From assembly GCA_900319365.1 (NCBI GenBank), contig ONOE01000006.1:1-64000 (forward strand): DNA of 64,000 bases, in the 5' to 3' direction. The position numbers were made by a program, and so were the translations under genes. Shown here one piece after another: positions 33,866 through 40,995 of this stretch. The notes under the pieces were generated by a model that worked only from the letters and a program-made list of their open reading frames with translations, did not search any database and was not told the origin of the DNA. Positions within the stretch are counted from its first letter, which is position 1, and the number at the start of each line of letters is the position of its first letter. The stretch comes from an uncultured bacterium. Its GTDB lineage: Bacteria > Cyanobacteriota > Vampirovibrionia > Gastranaerophilales > Gastranaerophilaceae.

Positions 33866-33909
33866 AAAATGTTCAAACTCCTTAATATTTCGCAGTTTTG
33901 AGTAATTTA

Positions 33910-33918
33910 TGCTATAAT
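33910..33918 (+). promoter_or_regulatory. Extended -10 promoter placing +1 at the methyltransferase ATG
   Basis: TGC plus TATAAT (33913-33918), exactly 6 bases before ATG 33925; no Shine-Dalgarno. Confidence 0.65.
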
Positions 33919-33924
33919 TTAGCT

Positions 33925-36438
33925 ATGTCTGAAGTAAGGAGTGCAAAAACATATATAAGCCTGTTTAGTAGCGCAGGCGTAGGCTGTTACGGTTTTAAAC
34001 AACACGGCTTTGATTGTGTTGCAACAAGTGAACTCATTGAACGCCGTCTAAATATTCAAAAGTATAATCACAAGTGCAGTATGGATTCCGGGTATATTTG
34101 CGGTGATATTACCGATAAAGCCGTATTGAAAAAATTGTACACTCAAATTTCCGATTATAAAAAGAAAAATAAAACCGGTGATATTGATGTTATTATTGCA
34201 ACACCGCCATGTCAGGGAATGTCGGTTGCTAATCATAAAAAAGCAAAAGACGAAATTAACAGAAACTCTCTTGTAGTTGCTGCAATTAACATCATAAAAA
34301 AAGTTAAACCGAAATTCTTTGTTTTTGAAAATGTTCAGGCATTTATGAAAACAAACTGCTATGATAACGGGGTTTTAAAACCTATATCGCAGGCGATTAA
34401 AGATAATTTGTCGGAAAATTACATTTATACGGACAAAATTTTGAATTTTAAAAATTACGGCTCAAATTCAAGCAGAACAAGAACTCTTGTAATAGGTGTA
34501 AGAAAAGATTTATCCGATGACGTTTTACCATTTGAACTTTTTCCCGATTATACTCCTGAAAAGACCTTAAAAGATGTCATATATGATCTCCCGCGTTTAA
34601 AGAAAATGGGCGAGATTTCAAAAAATGATATTTACCATTATTTCAGAGAATATTCTCCTCAGATGAGAGATTGGATAAAATATATAAAACAGGGACAGTC
34701 GGCTTACGACAATAAAGATGAGCGCAAAAGGCCACATAAAATCGTAGACGGTAAAATCGTTCAAAACGTAAATAAAAACGGCGATAAATATAAGCGCCAA
34801 TGCTGGGATAAGATTGCGCCATGTGTTCATACAAGAAATGATATTCTTGCGAGCCAAAATACTGTTCACCCTGAAGATGACAGGGTTTTCAGCATAAGAG
34901 AATTGATGCGGATGATGTCAATTCCTGATGATTTTAAATGGGTCGAAGAAGATGAAAAAACAATAAATGCACTCCCTCTAAAAGATAAAAAAGCTTTTCT
35001 AAAGAAAAATGATATAAATATAAGACAAAGTATCGGAGAAGCTATTCCGACAGCTGTTATATCCTGCGTGGCGTCAAAAATAGAAAAGTTCCTTGATACG
35101 GAAAAATTAAAAGACAAGGATATTAAAAAGATTATAAAATCGGACAATCTGTCAGATACTTCTGCGATTATTGATTTTATAAAGAAAAATAAAAATAAAT
35201 ATGCTTTGAGCACTCTTTCAAGAATAGCCGAACTTTCAAATAACAGACGCACCGAAACGGCGGCTTATTATACAAATAAACAACTGCTTTTTGAAATTTA
35301 TAACAACTTGCCCGAATTTAAACAAGAAAACATTAAAATCTTAGAACCCGCAGCAGGTGTGGGAAATTTTCTGCCTTTAATTATCGGTAAATATTCTAAT
35401 TGCAAAAAACTTGATATTTGTCTTTGCGATAAGGATTCCGAAGCTTTGAAAATTTTGCGGGAACTCTATAAAATATCGGGTATTCCGTCAAATGTGTCTA
35501 TCCGTATTAAAAACGAAGATTTTTTACTTGCAAAAAATAAAGTTCATTATGACTTGGCAATCGGCAATCCGCCTTACGGCAAGGTTAAAGATAAAAAATT
35601 GCTGTCAAAATACCGCAAATTGTATAACGATGATGAGGCAGATAATATTGCGGCGTTTTTTGTCGAAAAATGCCTGCAAACTGCGGATAAAATTTGTTTG
35701 ATTTTACCGAAATACTTCTTGCACAATACTGATTTTTCAAAATGCAGGGACTATACAAAAAAATATTGCATAGATTCAATTATTGATTTTGGTGAAAACG
35801 GATTTAAAGGCGTTTTGATAGAAACAATCTGTCTGATAACAGATAATAAAAAACTTCCGAGATATACCCTTTGTTATTCGGTTCCGTATAAAAAAACAAA
35901 CAAAATCTTACAATCCAAGCTTACTGACGAAAATTTCCCGAATTGGTTATTATACAGAAACGAAAATTTTGACAAAATCGCCGATAAAATGTGCTTCGGG
36001 GTATTTAAAAGTTTCAGGGACAGGCAAATTACAAATAAACTTTTAAAGCATAAAGGAAAAATATGGGTTATAAAATCCCGCAACATTGCGCAAAACGGTT
36101 CAAAAATTGAGCATTTGCCCGATTATGATGCATATCTTGATGATAGGGCAGATATTAAAAATTTATCCGTTGCAAAGTATTACGGCAGAGATGATGTGTA
36201 TTTGAGCCCGAATATGACCTATTACCCCAGAGTCATAAAAAAGCCCAAAAATACTATTGTGAACGGTTCTGTCGCTATTTTTGAAACGGAAAATAAAAAG
36301 AGAATATCCAAAAAAGATTTGGAATATTTTTCGACTGATGAATTTAGAAAATTTTACGGTATAGCAAGAAATTTGAGCACAAGATCGCTAAATCTCGATA
36401 AAAATGCCGTGTTTTATTTCGGGGTAAGAAAACGCTAA
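33925..36438 (+). CDS. Fused C5-cytosine and N6-adenine DNA methyltransferase
   Basis: 837 residues in two catalytic parts. Residues 1-390 are a complete m5C methyltransferase: motif I FSSAGVGCYGF, motif IV TPPCQG with nucleophile C96, motif VI FVFENV, motif VIII SSRTRT, motif IX/X 'RELMRMMSIPDDF' and 'IGEAIPTAV'. Residues about 440-830 are an N6-adenine methyltransferase: motif I LEPAAGVGNF (473-482) and motif IV NPPY (548-551), then a specificity-like tail. Fused m5C/m6A enzymes are known from type IIS systems with asymmetric sites, where each half modifies one strand. The gene ends 1 base before the HNH endonuclease gene. ATG 33925 is chosen from the leaderless -10 signature. Confidence 0.92.
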   Translation: MSEVRSAKTYISLFSSAGVGCYGFKQHGFDCVATSELIERRLNIQKYNHKCSMDSGYICGDITDKAVLKKLYTQISDYKKKNKTGDIDVIIATPPCQGMSVANHKKAKDEINRNSLVVAAINIIKKVKPKFFVFENVQAFMKTNCYDNGVLKPISQAIKDNLSENYIYTDKILNFKNYGSNSSRTRTLVIGVRKDLSDDVLPFELFPDYTPEKTLKDVIYDLPRLKKMGEISKNDIYHYFREYSPQMRDWIKYIKQGQSAYDNKDERKRPHKIVDGKIVQNVNKNGDKYKRQCWDKIAPCVHTRNDILASQNTVHPEDDRVFSIRELMRMMSIPDDFKWVEEDEKTINALPLKDKKAFLKKNDINIRQSIGEAIPTAVISCVASKIEKFLDTEKLKDKDIKKIIKSDNLSDTSAIIDFIKKNKNKYALSTLSRIAELSNNRRTETAAYYTNKQLLFEIYNNLPEFKQENIKILEPAAGVGNFLPLIIGKYSNCKKLDICLCDKDSEALKILRELYKISGIPSNVSIRIKNEDFLLAKNKVHYDLAIGNPPYGKVKDKKLLSKYRKLYNDDEADNIAAFFVEKCLQTADKICLILPKYFLHNTDFSKCRDYTKKYCIDSIIDFGENGFKGVLIETICLITDNKKLPRYTLCYSVPYKKTNKILQSKLTDENFPNWLLYRNENFDKIADKMCFGVFKSFRDRQITNKLLKHKGKIWVIKSRNIAQNGSKIEHLPDYDAYLDDRADIKNLSVAKYYGRDDVYLSPNMTYYPRVIKKPKNTIVNGSVAIFETENKKRISKKDLEYFSTDEFRKFYGIARNLSTRSLNLDKNAVFYFGVRKR

Positions 36439-36439
36439 T

Positions 36440-37666
36440 ATGTTAACAAACACAGATATAACTGAATTTTTAAATAAATACGATTATGATATAAGAAAGA
36501 CGGGCAACGCTCGCTGGATTGACCAGAAATGTACGCCTGATGTCATTACGATTATATCTGACTGTATATATAATTTTCACTTAAATAATTCCGAAAAATT
36601 TTTTACGTCGTCAGATATAAGATTTTCCGATTATGCAAGAAGTAATGTTGTTGAAATTTTTAAAAAGCCCGAAGTGGATTCTGATAAAGCAGAACATGAA
36701 TACGATAAATTCTTCCAGCAGCCGATGGAATTGCTTGCGGCATCTCATGTTCTGACAAAATACAAGGTTAAAAACAGAAATGTTTATGAAATATCCGATA
36801 TTGAGATTTTGGATTATCTTGCGCTAAGAGAGAAAAATTCACTATATTTTTTGAAAGAATATATAACAAAAACTCTTAAAGACAGCGGGATTTATCCTTT
36901 ATTTGAAACATTTTTCAATAATCAGACTCCCGAAAATTATTCAAAAATGAAAAGCGGTTTTTCGAGTTTTACGATAAAAAACACTCCCATAAATAAAGAG
37001 CTTGAATGCAACAGAATTTTTATCAAGGTGCTGAATCCTCTTGCATACTTCAAAAATTCTTTAGGCACGGTAAAAGGCAGATTGTCAAAAGACAAAATAA
37101 CCTATGATATGTTGATGTACAACAGAAATAATTTCCGTGATATCAATGCCGAGAAACCGAAAAATGTAACAAGAAAAGAATATATGCAATCGCATAAAAT
37201 CGTATTCAACAAGGCTTATTACAGATATCAATCTCAAAAAGCAAAAAGGGTTTTGCATGATTTTAATACCCGTTATCGCAGGGATAAAAGCGAGTATGAT
37301 GATGAATACGCAAATGCTCCCGCAACGGAAATTCATCATATATTTCCCGAAAGCAAATATCCCGAAATTTCATATTATTTGGAAAATCTTATCGCTCTTA
37401 CTCCGACCCAGCATTTAAATTGCGCACATCCGAATCATAAAACCGGTGAAATTTCAAAGTCGTATCAGCATAAATTGCTGCTTGCAAAAGTTGAAAGAAT
37501 TAAAGAAAACTTAAATTCAGGTAATGCGGAAAAGAAATATTCTTTTTCAAATTTGCTTAAGGTGCTTGCTGTGGCGTTTGAAGATGACGGGATTTTGAAT
37601 ATTGATAATAATTATTTTGATGCGATAGTCGATGTAATCAATTCTCATTATTTAAGTGAACAATAG
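36440..37666 (+). CDS. HNH-type restriction endonuclease (putative type IIS)
   Basis: 408 residues. The C-terminal HNH site is visible: H299-H300 in 'TEIHHIFPESKYP', N316 in 'LENLIALTPTQH' and H325. This fits a beta-beta-alpha-metal nuclease. The N-terminal 280 residues are unrecognised and presumably read the target. It starts 1 base after the methyltransferase stop, without its own clear ribosome site, so it is translationally coupled and dependent on prior methyltransferase synthesis. Eco31I/Esp3I-type IIS enzymes are also HNH nucleases paired with m5C plus m6A methylation, so that group is the best comparison. The recognition sequence cannot be deduced. Confidence 0.85.
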   Translation: MLTNTDITEFLNKYDYDIRKTGNARWIDQKCTPDVITIISDCIYNFHLNNSEKFFTSSDIRFSDYARSNVVEIFKKPEVDSDKAEHEYDKFFQQPMELLAASHVLTKYKVKNRNVYEISDIEILDYLALREKNSLYFLKEYITKTLKDSGIYPLFETFFNNQTPENYSKMKSGFSSFTIKNTPINKELECNRIFIKVLNPLAYFKNSLGTVKGRLSKDKITYDMLMYNRNNFRDINAEKPKNVTRKEYMQSHKIVFNKAYYRYQSQKAKRVLHDFNTRYRRDKSEYDDEYANAPATEIHHIFPESKYPEISYYLENLIALTPTQHLNCAHPNHKTGEISKSYQHKLLLAKVERIKENLNSGNAEKKYSFSNLLKVLAVAFEDDGILNIDNNYFDAIVDVINSHYLSEQ

Positions 37667-37774: not shown

Positions 37775-38776
37775 CTACACAAATTGTCCGCAGCATTCGC
37801 TTCCGCAGAATTTGCACCTGTTTATTACAAGGTTGTATTCTGAAATTTGATACCCGTCCCTTACAATTAACGGTCTGGCGCAGTTTTTGCAATATGTACT
37901 TGAGGTTTCAATATTTGTGAGATTGCCTGTATAAACATTATTTAGCCCGACTTGTTTTGCGATTTTATAAGCTTTTAAAAGTGTTGAAAAACTCGTGGCT
38001 TTTTTGTTTGAAAATTTATATCTCGGGAAAAAGGCACTAAAGTGCAGCGGAATGTCAGAGTTTAAATTTTTTAAAATCCATTCGCATTCGGATTTGAGCA
38101 TTTCTTCGCCGTCGTTTTCGCCTTCAATCAGCATGGTTGTTAATTCCGTATGACAATTCGTTTTGTTAACCGTGTATTCTATTGTTTTTAAAACGGGTTC
38201 AATATCCGAAAGACAGTTTTTTTTGTAAAATTCTTTGCTAAACCCTTTTAAATCAATATTTGCCCCATCCATATATTTAAAAAATTCTTTTGCGGGTTCG
38301 GGGTTTATAAACCCTGAAGTTATCGCAACTGTTTTAATCCCATTTTCACGGCATAGTTTTGCACAGTCAATCGCATATTCAAAAAATATTATCGGATCGT
38401 TATAGGTGAATGCAACGCTTTTGCAATTGTATTTTTGGGCAATTTCCACAATTTCTTTCGGCGAAGTTTTATTAAAATCCTGCGGGTTTGAATTATTTTT
38501 TGTCGTTTGCCAATTCTGGCAAAATTGGCAGCCCATGTTACAGCCTAATGTCCCGAATGACAGCGCAAAGCTTCCGGGGTAAAAGTGATAAAGCGGTTTT
38601 TTCTCTATCGGGTCAATTGCAAGCCCCGTATTGTAACCGTAAGTTGTTAATTCAATGTTTCCCTTAACATTTTTTCTTACATGGCAAAACCCGCTCTGTG
38701 TCGGAGCTAAAACGCATTTTCTCGGACAGATTAAGCATTGAACTTTACTGTTTGTTAATATATTTTGATATTTCAT
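37775..38776 (-). CDS. amrS: AmmeMemoRadiSam system radical SAM enzyme
   Basis: 333 residues. The radical SAM [4Fe-4S] motif is CX3CX2C in 'GTLGCNMGCQFCQNW'. An N-terminal cysteine pair 'CLICPRKCVL' and a further 'FCHVRKN', plus a C-terminal 'YCKNCARPLIVR' and 'CKFCGSECCG' zinc-like group, match the AmrS/PflA-like family. The substrate of this system is not established to my knowledge. The gene is divergent from the Memo-AMMECR1 fusion, only 21 bases away. The minus-strand TATAAT ends 7 bases before its ATG, with no ribosome site. Confidence 0.92.
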   Translation of the reverse strand: MKYQNILTNSKVQCLICPRKCVLAPTQSGFCHVRKNVKGNIELTTYGYNTGLAIDPIEKKPLYHFYPGSFALSFGTLGCNMGCQFCQNWQTTKNNSNPQDFNKTSPKEIVEIAQKYNCKSVAFTYNDPIIFFEYAIDCAKLCRENGIKTVAITSGFINPEPAKEFFKYMDGANIDLKGFSKEFYKKNCLSDIEPVLKTIEYTVNKTNCHTELTTMLIEGENDGEEMLKSECEWILKNLNSDIPLHFSAFFPRYKFSNKKATSFSTLLKAYKIAKQVGLNNVYTGNLTNIETSSTYCKNCARPLIVRDGYQISEYNLVINRCKFCGSECCGQFV

Positions 38777-38783
38777 AAAATAT

Positions 38784-38791
38784 ATTATAAT
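38784..38791. promoter_or_regulatory. Shared palindromic -10 box for two divergent leaderless genes
   Basis: ATTATAAT is its own reverse complement. It gives TATAAT on the plus strand (38786-38791, 6 bases before ATG 38798) and on the minus strand (complement of 38784-38789, 7 bases before ATG 38776). The whole intergenic region is 38777-38797, so the -35 regions must lie inside the opposite coding sequences. No strong -35 was recognised. Confidence 0.65.
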
Positions 38792-38797
38792 ACTATT

Positions 38798-40138
38798 ATG
38801 AAGATAAAAGAACCCGCAGTTGCAAATACTTTTTATACGGCGAATGTCGAAGATTTAAAGCTACATATAGATTACTTTAAAAGCATAAGTAAAAATCTCT
38901 ATACGTGTCCGACAAGAGCTGTTATCGTTCCTCATGCAGGATTTGTTTATTCGGGGCGTATTGCTTATGAGGGAATAAGCCAGATTGACAGAAACGTTAA
39001 AAATATTTTCATTTTTGCTCCTGCTCACAGAGTCGGTTTTGACGGACTTGCGTTAACGTGTTATGATGCGTGGAAAACACCTCTCGGGATTACGGAAGTA
39101 AACCATGAAATAGGGCAGGAATTGCATGATAAATTCGGCGCAAACGTAAATGATGATGCAATGTTTGGCGAGCATTCAATTGAAGTTGAATTGCCGATTA
39201 TTCAATATCTTTTCAAAAATGTAAAAATTGTTCCGGTACTGATAGGGAAAGAAAAGCCCGAAAAAATAAGCGAAATTATTTCACATTATTATCCCGATAA
39301 AAACAATGCATTTGTTATTTCATCGGATTTAAGTCATTTCTTAACTGATGACAACGCTAAGAAAGCCGATAAAGTAACGGCTCGCATGATTGAATCGGGT
39401 GATATCAGAAAATTTTCTTACGAAAATGCGTGCGGTGCTGTCGGAATTATGGGCTTGGTTTCGTTTGCCAATTCAAATAAATATTCAATGATTAGAATTG
39501 ATTTGGCAAATTCATCGGAAATTTCAGAGGATAAATCAAGAGTTGTCGGATACGGAAGCTGGTTTTTATTTGAAGGCAGCAAAGATGATTTTATCGCTCA
39601 ATATCACCCCGGATTTGTAATTGATATTTGCAAAATTATATTAAAATCCGAATTTGATCATAAACCTATGCAGATAATTTATCCGCAGGTATTTGATGAA
39701 CCCGGAGCCTGCTTTGTTACGCTTGAAGAAAACGGACATTTGAGAGGTTGTATCGGATCAATTGCACCTTACAGACCTTTAATAACGGATTTGGTAGAAC
39801 ACGTAAAAGATGCGGCTTTCAAGGATACAAGGTTTAATCCCGTAACGGAAGATGAACTCCCGCTTTTGAAATATGCCGTTTCAATTCTTACTACCCCTAA
39901 AATGATAGCTTTTAAAGACGAAGAAGATTTGTTGAAAAAAATCGTTCCTCATCAAGACGGTATCATTATAAGAGATAATGGTCATCAGGCTGTATATTTG
40001 CCTGCCGTTTGGGACGAATTGCCCGACAAAAAAGAATTTTTAAATTCATTGAAAGTCAAAGCGGGTTTACCGAAAGATTATTTCTCTCATACATTGGAAG
40101 CTTACAAATTTTCTACAATTTATATTAAAGAAAATTAA
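38798..40138 (+). CDS. amrB: AmmeMemoRadiSam proteins B (Memo-like) and A (AMMECR1) fused
   Basis: 446 residues. Residues about 1-265 are Memo-like (AmrB): 'VVPHAGFVYSG'-type segment (here IVPHAGFVYSGRIAYEG), 'FIFAPAHRVGFDGLAL', 'FGEHSIEVELPIIQYLF' and 'VISSDLSHFL', with conserved His positions of the dioxygenase-like fold. Residues about 270-446 are AMMECR1 (AmrA): 'ACFVTLEENGHLRGCIGSIAPYRPL', 'AAFKDTRFNPVTEDELPLL' and 'WDELPDKKEFLNSLKVKAGLP'. Separate genes in many bacteria, fused here, which supports a direct complex. Start chosen from the -10 box 6 bases upstream; the ATG at 38765 would overlap amrS. Confidence 0.92.
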   Translation: MKIKEPAVANTFYTANVEDLKLHIDYFKSISKNLYTCPTRAVIVPHAGFVYSGRIAYEGISQIDRNVKNIFIFAPAHRVGFDGLALTCYDAWKTPLGITEVNHEIGQELHDKFGANVNDDAMFGEHSIEVELPIIQYLFKNVKIVPVLIGKEKPEKISEIISHYYPDKNNAFVISSDLSHFLTDDNAKKADKVTARMIESGDIRKFSYENACGAVGIMGLVSFANSNKYSMIRIDLANSSEISEDKSRVVGYGSWFLFEGSKDDFIAQYHPGFVIDICKIILKSEFDHKPMQIIYPQVFDEPGACFVTLEENGHLRGCIGSIAPYRPLITDLVEHVKDAAFKDTRFNPVTEDELPLLKYAVSILTTPKMIAFKDEEDLLKKIVPHQDGIIIRDNGHQAVYLPAVWDELPDKKEFLNSLKVKAGLPKDYFSHTLEAYKFSTIYIKEN

Positions 40139-40329: not shown

Positions 40330-40995
40330 ATGGAAAACAAAGAAGAAAAAGCGGTAGAAGTTAAAGAAGAAACTTCCGCTGAAAAAATAGAATCAACAGA
40401 TGAACAAAAATCTGTTGAAACTCAGGCAGATGCTCCTGCAGAACAAAATGAAAAACCTGCAAGAGGACGCCGCAGAAGAAAACAAAAAATCGAAACAACA
40501 TCAGAAGAAAAACCTCAATCGGAATGGACTGAAAATGTTGTTCAAATCAGCCGTGTAACAAAAGTTGTAAAAGGCGGTAAAAAATTATCTTTCCGTGCAA
40601 TTGTTATTGTCGGCAACAAAAAAGGTCAGGTTGGTGTAGGCTGTGCTAAAGCTTCAGAAGTTATCATTGCTATTCAAAAAGCAATCGCTGACGGCAGAAA
40701 GAACGTTATCACGGTTCCTATCTTCAAGACAACAATTCCTCACCCCGTTCAAGGAAAATCAGGTGCAGGCTGCGTTATGTTAAGACCCGCATCACAAGGT
40801 ACAGGGATTATCGCAGGCGGTGCTGTTCGTTCAGTATTAGAGCTTGCAGGTATTGAAAACATTCTGGCCAAATCTTTAGGTTCAAAAGCTCCTTTGAATG
40901 CCGTTAACGCAACAATCGAAGCTCTTAAATCTTTGACTCCGTTTAGCGAAATGGCTAAAAAGCGCGGTTTGTCAATGGCTGAGTTTTTAAATTAG
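40330..40995 (+). CDS. rpsE: 30S ribosomal protein S5 with N-terminal extension
   Basis: 221 residues against about 165 for most S5. The core begins near residue 65 ([25 protein letters not shown], quoted in parts) with '[22 protein letters not shown]', '[19 protein letters not shown]' and '[19 protein letters not shown]'. The first roughly 60 residues are a Glu/Lys-rich acidic tail followed by the basic 'RGRRRRKQK'. This is not part of the usual S5 fold. AAAGG lies 8-9 bases before the ATG. It is first in a four-gene operon; the normally preceding rplF-rplR genes are absent. Confidence 0.96.

What the first reader, a model, noticed from the sequence alone, without database searches (positions are those of the whole stretch)
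38777..38797. 21-bp divergent intergenic region with one palindromic -10 box serving two leaderless genes
The entire space between amrS (minus) and the amrB-amrA fusion (plus) is 21 bases and contains ATTATAAT, identical on both strands. It places TATAAT 7 bases before one ATG and 6 before the other. The two transcripts would have to compete for the same melted DNA, each with its -35 inside the other's coding region. This would give automatic mutual exclusion between the radical SAM enzyme and its partner protein.
Basis: partly seen in the sequence, partly recalled or inferred. Interest (0 to 1): 0.6.

Follow-up and report, generated by a model that had tools for sequence, protein, structure and literature searches.

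The report
Shared two-way promoter between leaderless genes
Two back-to-back bacterial genes with only 21 bases between them appear to share one promoter box that reads the same on both strands, and this arrangement has been kept in many related genera; it is a very compact, conserved case of a known kind of two-way promoter, and probably not an on/off switch between the two proteins.

Summary
amrS (minus, ATG 38776) and the amrB-amrA fusion (plus, ATG 38798) are 21 bp apart; ATTATAAT (38784-38791) puts TATAAT 6 nt before amrBA and 7 nt before amrS, with no Shine-Dalgarno site. It is not chance: all 61 compact relatives found (13 genera, two families) have ATTATAAT, and among 39 distinct 21-bp spacers its eight columns are invariant while the other 13 all vary. 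Where amrBA lies further from the box, a Shine-Dalgarno-like motif is usual (13 of 15), against 0 of 62 (amrBA) and 0 of 73 (amrS) where the box adjoins the gene. TATAAT exactly 6 nt before ATG is a genome-wide leaderless signature here. Best reading: a bidirectional promoter with one shared, perfectly symmetric -10 element driving two leaderless mRNAs. Both ingredients are known; the minimal back-to-back combination looks like a new variant. 'Automatic mutual exclusion' of the two proteins is not supported: exclusion concerns simultaneous polymerase binding only, published bidirectional promoters show little competition at basal activity, and in the genus the two genes are present or absent together. 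No transcript ends have been mapped.

The parts
38784..38791 (.). ATTATAAT, the shared symmetric -10 octamer (two TATAAT boxes overlapping by TATA)
   Evidence: all eight columns invariant in 39 distinct 21-bp spacers
38786..38791 (+). -10 box (TATAAT) for amrBA, 6 nt before ATG
   Evidence: 6-nt spacing is the genome-wide leaderless peak
38784..38789 (-). -10 box (TATAAT) for amrS, 7 nt before ATG
   Evidence: 7-nt spacing kept in 58 of 61 compact pairs and in most pairs with longer spacers
38777..38797 (.). whole intergenic spacer, 21 bp; bidirectional promoter core plus both discriminators, no Shine-Dalgarno site
   Evidence: the 13 columns outside the octamer all vary
37775..38776 (-). amrS, AmmeMemoRadiSam radical SAM enzyme, 333 aa
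   Evidence: TIGR04337 440 bits, Pfam Radical_SAM
38798..40138 (+). amrB-amrA fusion (Memo + AMMECR1), 446 aa
   Evidence: TIGR04336, TIGR04335, Pfam Memo and AMMECR1
38763..38770 (+). weak -35 region for amrBA inside amrS codons 3-5: TTTTGA at 17-bp spacer, TTGATA at 15-bp spacer
   Evidence: amrS codons 3 and 4 are codon-frozen in relatives (ranks 4 and 3 of 327), suggestive only
38807..38812 (-). position of the amrS -35 inside amrBA (TTCTTT, 2 of 6 matches): essentially no -35 hexamer

Best explanation
The 21-bp spacer is the core of a bidirectional promoter. One octamer, ATTATAAT, holds a perfect sigma-70-type TATAAT on each strand, overlapping by the four bases TATA, the tightest overlap two perfect TATAAT boxes allow (follows from the letters). 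RNA polymerase can bind in either orientation and melt the same base pairs. Transcription toward amrBA should start at its ATG, and toward amrS at its ATG or one base before, so both messages are leaderless and need no Shine-Dalgarno site. Each box fixes positions -13 and -14 of the other, so neither promoter can carry the TGn extended -10 element; with weak -35 elements both should be modest promoters that supply two partners of one pathway together. Shown by sequence: anatomy, conservation, leaderless spacing rule, Shine-Dalgarno trade-off. Inferred: that both start sites are used, their exact bases, promoter strength, and co-expression as the benefit.
For: 61 of 61 compact pairs keep ATTATAAT; spacing 7/6 in 53 of them. 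In 39 distinct 21-bp spacers the invariant block is exactly the union of the two hexamers. TATAAT exactly 6 nt (14 genes) or 7 nt (4) before the first ATG of 296 genes, other distances 0-4; with one mismatch 30 genes at 6 nt against about 5. Shine-Dalgarno-like motif in 13 of 15 paired amrBA genes whose box is far, 0 of 62 when near; 0 of 73 near for amrS. amrBA genes without a divergent amrS mostly keep TATAAT 6-7 nt before ATG. Conserved N-termini leave little room for a later start codon.
Against: No transcript ends mapped in any member. Weak -35 elements. The comparison paired versus solo rests on about two changes on the tree, so it is not a statistical test. Two solo amrS genes keep ATTATAAT (L150, L166) and two solo amrBA genes have it 34-35 nt upstream (L071, L074), so the octamer does not strictly need the pair.
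Confidence: 0.85

Rival explanations
1. Regulatory switch: the shared box makes the two genes mutually exclusive, so that a cell makes either the radical SAM enzyme or its partner, or activation of one side shuts off the other.
For: Simultaneous binding in both orientations is sterically impossible, and activated bidirectional promoters can repress the opposite transcript (PMC12825309). The overlap is deeply conserved.
Against: At basal activity five tested bidirectional promoters showed little competition. The two genes are gained or lost together in the genus. Relatives have separated genes or longer spacers without losing either gene. No activator site was identified; the spacer leaves no room for one.
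Confidence: 0.1
2. Operator: the palindrome is a dimeric regulator's binding site that happens to look like -10 boxes.
For: The perfect palindrome extends to 12 bp or more in 24 of 39 distinct spacers.
Against: Conservation stops exactly at the two hexamers; outside, the two sides vary and the perfect palindrome drops to 8 bp in 8 spacers. The 6-nt box-to-ATG spacing is a genome-wide leaderless rule.
Confidence: 0.04
3. Only one gene uses the box; the other starts from a promoter further upstream and the symmetry is incidental.
For: In longer-spacer relatives amrBA has a leader and Shine-Dalgarno motif; start sites are unmapped.
Against: amrBA without amrS still has its own TATAAT 6-7 nt before ATG in most cases. 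Both spacings are held constant in 53 of 61 compact pairs. L029 and L167 show that leaders come with an extra Shine-Dalgarno-like motif on the displaced side.
Confidence: 0.08
4. Chance in an AT-rich genome.
For: The octamer is not rare; about 11% of all TATAAT sites in 353 kb are preceded by AT.
Against: Present in 61 of 61 compact pairs over 13 genera with fixed spacing, in spacers whose other columns all vary.
Confidence: 0.01

Closest known systems
Bidirectional bacterial promoters with a shared near-symmetric -10 element (Warman, Grainger and colleagues; PMC12825309, PMC10268837)
   Same: Divergent start sites expected within 7-25 bp, polymerase able to bind in two orientations at one -10 region, divergent genes often functionally linked.
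   Different: Preferred E. coli spacing is 18 bp (10 and 23 also common), where positions -7 and -11 coincide; here two perfect TATAAT boxes overlap by TATA with a predicted spacing of 21-22 bp. Both start sites coincide with start codons and no 5' leader exists on either side.
Leaderless genes with the -10 box adjoining the ORF (PMC3160421; Deinococcus-Thermus, PMC12340547)
   Same: TATAAT/TANNNT about 6-7 nt before the start codon, no Shine-Dalgarno site, seen genome-wide here.
   Different: Those papers describe one-directional promoters; the words bidirectional and divergent do not occur in either text.
AmmeMemoRadiSam system (NCBIfam TIGR04335, TIGR04336, TIGR04337)
   Same: All three components are present, with B and A fused in one protein.
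   Different: The family is known, its biochemical function is not; only the promoter arrangement is notable.

Membership tests
Bidirectional promoter with shared -10 element | Reciprocally overlapping -10 sequences on opposite strands | tested here: met
   ATTATAAT = TATAAT on both strands, invariant in relatives
Bidirectional promoter with shared -10 element | Divergent mapped transcription start sites 7-25 bp apart | not testable with these tools
   Predicted 21-22 bp from the usual box-to-start distance; no 5'-end data
Bidirectional promoter with shared -10 element | Preferred 18-bp configuration with -7 and -11 coinciding | tested here: not met
   Geometry of ATTATAAT gives 21-22 bp (definitions). 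This is a preference in E. coli, not a requirement
Leaderless gene | -10 box 6-7 nt before the start codon | tested here: met
   6 and 7 nt; genome-wide peak at 6 nt
Leaderless gene | No Shine-Dalgarno site | tested here: met
   0 of 62 amrBA and 0 of 73 amrS with adjoining box
Leaderless gene | mRNA 5' end at the start codon | not testable with these tools
   No transcript data
Dimeric regulator operator | Symmetric conservation beyond the -10 boxes | tested here: not met
   All 13 columns outside the octamer vary; perfect palindrome 8 to 20 bp long
AmmeMemoRadiSam system | Radical SAM, Memo and AMMECR1 components encoded together | tested here: met
   TIGR04337, TIGR04336, TIGR04335 above cut-offs

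The most novel reading that the evidence does not exclude
The exact overlap of the two promoters is itself selected because it couples the output of the enzyme and its partner (fixed ratio, lower noise, or polymerase competition when one direction is activated), rather than merely being the shortest workable spacer.
Probability: 0.17. Interest if true: 0.65.

Novelty: new variant of a known kind. Interest (0 to 1): 0.45.

Why it matters
It is about the smallest space in which two divergent genes can each have a full consensus -10 box and a start site, and it has persisted across many genera. It joins two known themes, bidirectional promoters and leaderless expression from gene-adjacent -10 boxes, and offers a natural series (both leaderless, one leadered, genes separated) in which the effect of promoter overlap on two partner proteins can be measured.

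Tried and rejected
Operator reading: rejected because conservation stops at the two hexamers. Chance: rejected by conservation and spacing. Phylogenetically independent test of paired versus solo: run, but about two changes on the tree, so no power. -35 constraint: amrS codons 3, 4 and 7 are among the most codon-conserved of 327 and codon 4 is CAA in 35 of 35 against 67% CAA genome-wide, but AT bias at 5' ends could explain this and no control genes were run. The first pattern search used wrong gaps and found nothing; one search replaced it. Same double architecture elsewhere: of 20 non-amr matches read, only two lie between two real genes. Literature search for leaderless genes in Gastranaerophilales found nothing, and the organism's name was never established.

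Full report
What was checked. The sequence at 38777-38797 is aaaatatattataatactatt, bounded by the ATG of amrS on the minus strand (38776) and the ATG of the amrB-amrA fusion on the plus strand (38798). ATTATAAT occupies 38784-38791. Reading TATAAT on each strand leaves 6 nt to the amrBA ATG and 7 nt to the amrS ATG. Pfam and NCBIfam confirm the genes: AmmeMemoRadiSam radical SAM enzyme, and a Memo plus AMMECR1 fusion.

Is it more than chance? The octamer alone is not rare in this AT-rich genome. The placement is: CAT-N7-ATTATAAT-N6-ATG occurs once in the 1.95-Mb genome. In 288 genomes of the family it gives 103 listed matches, about 46 of them at this locus (both my counts from the listing), against about 19 for the backward control. 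Of 20 non-amr matches read in detail only two lie between two real genes: a uvrC-like gene with a small cysteine-rich protein (L109), and a prephenate dehydratase-like gene with a phosphohexomutase-like gene (L125); these names are by eye.

Conservation. Relatives were collected from genus, family and order. Among 61 compact divergent pairs (spacer 21-24 bp; 13 genera in two families by the group codes) all 61 contain ATTATAAT. Spacing is 7 nt to amrS and 6 nt to amrBA in 53. Among 39 distinct 21-bp spacers the eight columns of the octamer are invariant and each of the other 13 varies. The invariant block equals the union of two TATAAT boxes and no more. The perfect palindrome runs from 8 to 20 bp, so symmetry outside the boxes is not required, which argues against a protein operator. 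Some relatives are metagenome bins, so a genus label may occasionally be wrong.

Leaderless expression. In 353 kb of the same genome TATAAT sits exactly 6 nt before the first ATG in 14 of 296 genes and 7 nt in 4; each other distance has 0-4. With one mismatch allowed the count at 6 nt is 30 against about 5 elsewhere. This is the pattern reported for leaderless genes in other bacteria (PMC3160421, PMC12340547). Among these 18 boxes only the two amr boxes are preceded by AT and so form ATTATAAT.

Natural experiments. In divergent relatives with longer spacers (37-65 bp) the box usually keeps its 7-nt distance to amrS while the amrBA start lies 24-50 nt away, and a Shine-Dalgarno-like motif is found in 13 of 15 such amrBA genes. 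With the box adjoining the gene the count is 0 of 62 for amrBA and 0 of 73 for amrS. In L029 the usual ATG position reads AAG within AAGGAG and the start lies downstream. L167 is the mirror case: box 23 nt from amrS and 6 nt from amrBA. Where amrBA stands without amrS (seven genera), TATAAT lies 6-7 nt before ATG in 13 cases and none of these 13 is ATTATAAT; two solo amrS genes do keep the octamer. The amrBA tree needs only about two changes between paired and solo, so this contrast is descriptive, not a test. On the amrS tree most compact pairs fall in one large group with a few longer and solo ones, and most longer spacers lie outside it; the root is not inferred, so the direction of change is open.

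Promoter strength. The amrBA side has TTGATA at a 15-bp spacer or TTTTGA at 17; the amrS side has TTCTTT at 17. In the overlap each box fixes positions -13 and -14 of the other, which rules out the TGn extended -10 element that several other leaderless promoters of this genome seem to carry (GC or GT before the box in 13 of 34; the reading as TGn is an inference). Codons 3 and 4 of amrS, under the amrBA -35 position, are unusually frozen, suggestive only.

Mechanism. The best reading is a bidirectional promoter with one shared -10 element whose two start sites coincide with, or lie one base from, the two start codons. The predicted start-to-start distance of 21-22 bp is within the 7-25 bp definition but differs from the preferred 18 bp of E. 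coli. The further step, mutual exclusion of the two proteins, does not follow: five bidirectional promoters studied in vitro were too weak at baseline to compete, and competition arose on activation. In the genus 23 genomes carry both genes and 23 carry neither, which fits joint use.

Status. Shown: anatomy, conservation, spacing rule, Shine-Dalgarno trade-off. Inferred: use of both start sites, promoter strength, benefit of co-expression. I found no paper describing two leaderless genes sharing one -10 box back to back, but that rests on one narrow search of an open-access library.

Noticed in passing
L086:6841-6887 (G000 contig C18 46841-46887): A second divergent pair of leaderless-type genes in the same genome, but with two separate TATAAT boxes in a 45-bp spacer: a natural non-overlapping comparator.
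   Followed up: partly
L109:1501-1527 (reverse strand) and L125:1501-1527: Two other divergent gene pairs in the family that share CAT-N7-ATTATAAT-N6-ATG: uvrC-like with a small cysteine-rich protein, and a prephenate dehydratase-like gene with a phosphohexomutase-like gene.
   Followed up: partly
L029 and L167 spacers: Two relatives in which one side has become leadered: L029 has AAG in place of the amrBA ATG within AAGGAG, L167 has the box 23 nt from amrS.
   Followed up: partly
window 39490-39515 (amrBA about codons 232-239; alignment columns 233-239): The strongest synonymous-codon conservation in amrBA lies here (AGA ATT GAT nearly fixed), away from the promoter; unexplained.
   Followed up: partly
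window 40330-40995: Ribosomal protein S5-like ORF with a long charged N-terminal extension, at the head of what looks like an S5-L30-L15-SecY order (by eye).
   Followed up: no
window 33898-37666: A large ORF that looks like a cytosine methyltransferase joined to a second methyltransferase-like part, followed by an HNH-like ORF: possibly a restriction-modification pair; the first has TATAAT 6 nt before an ATG at 33925 (by eye).
   Followed up: no
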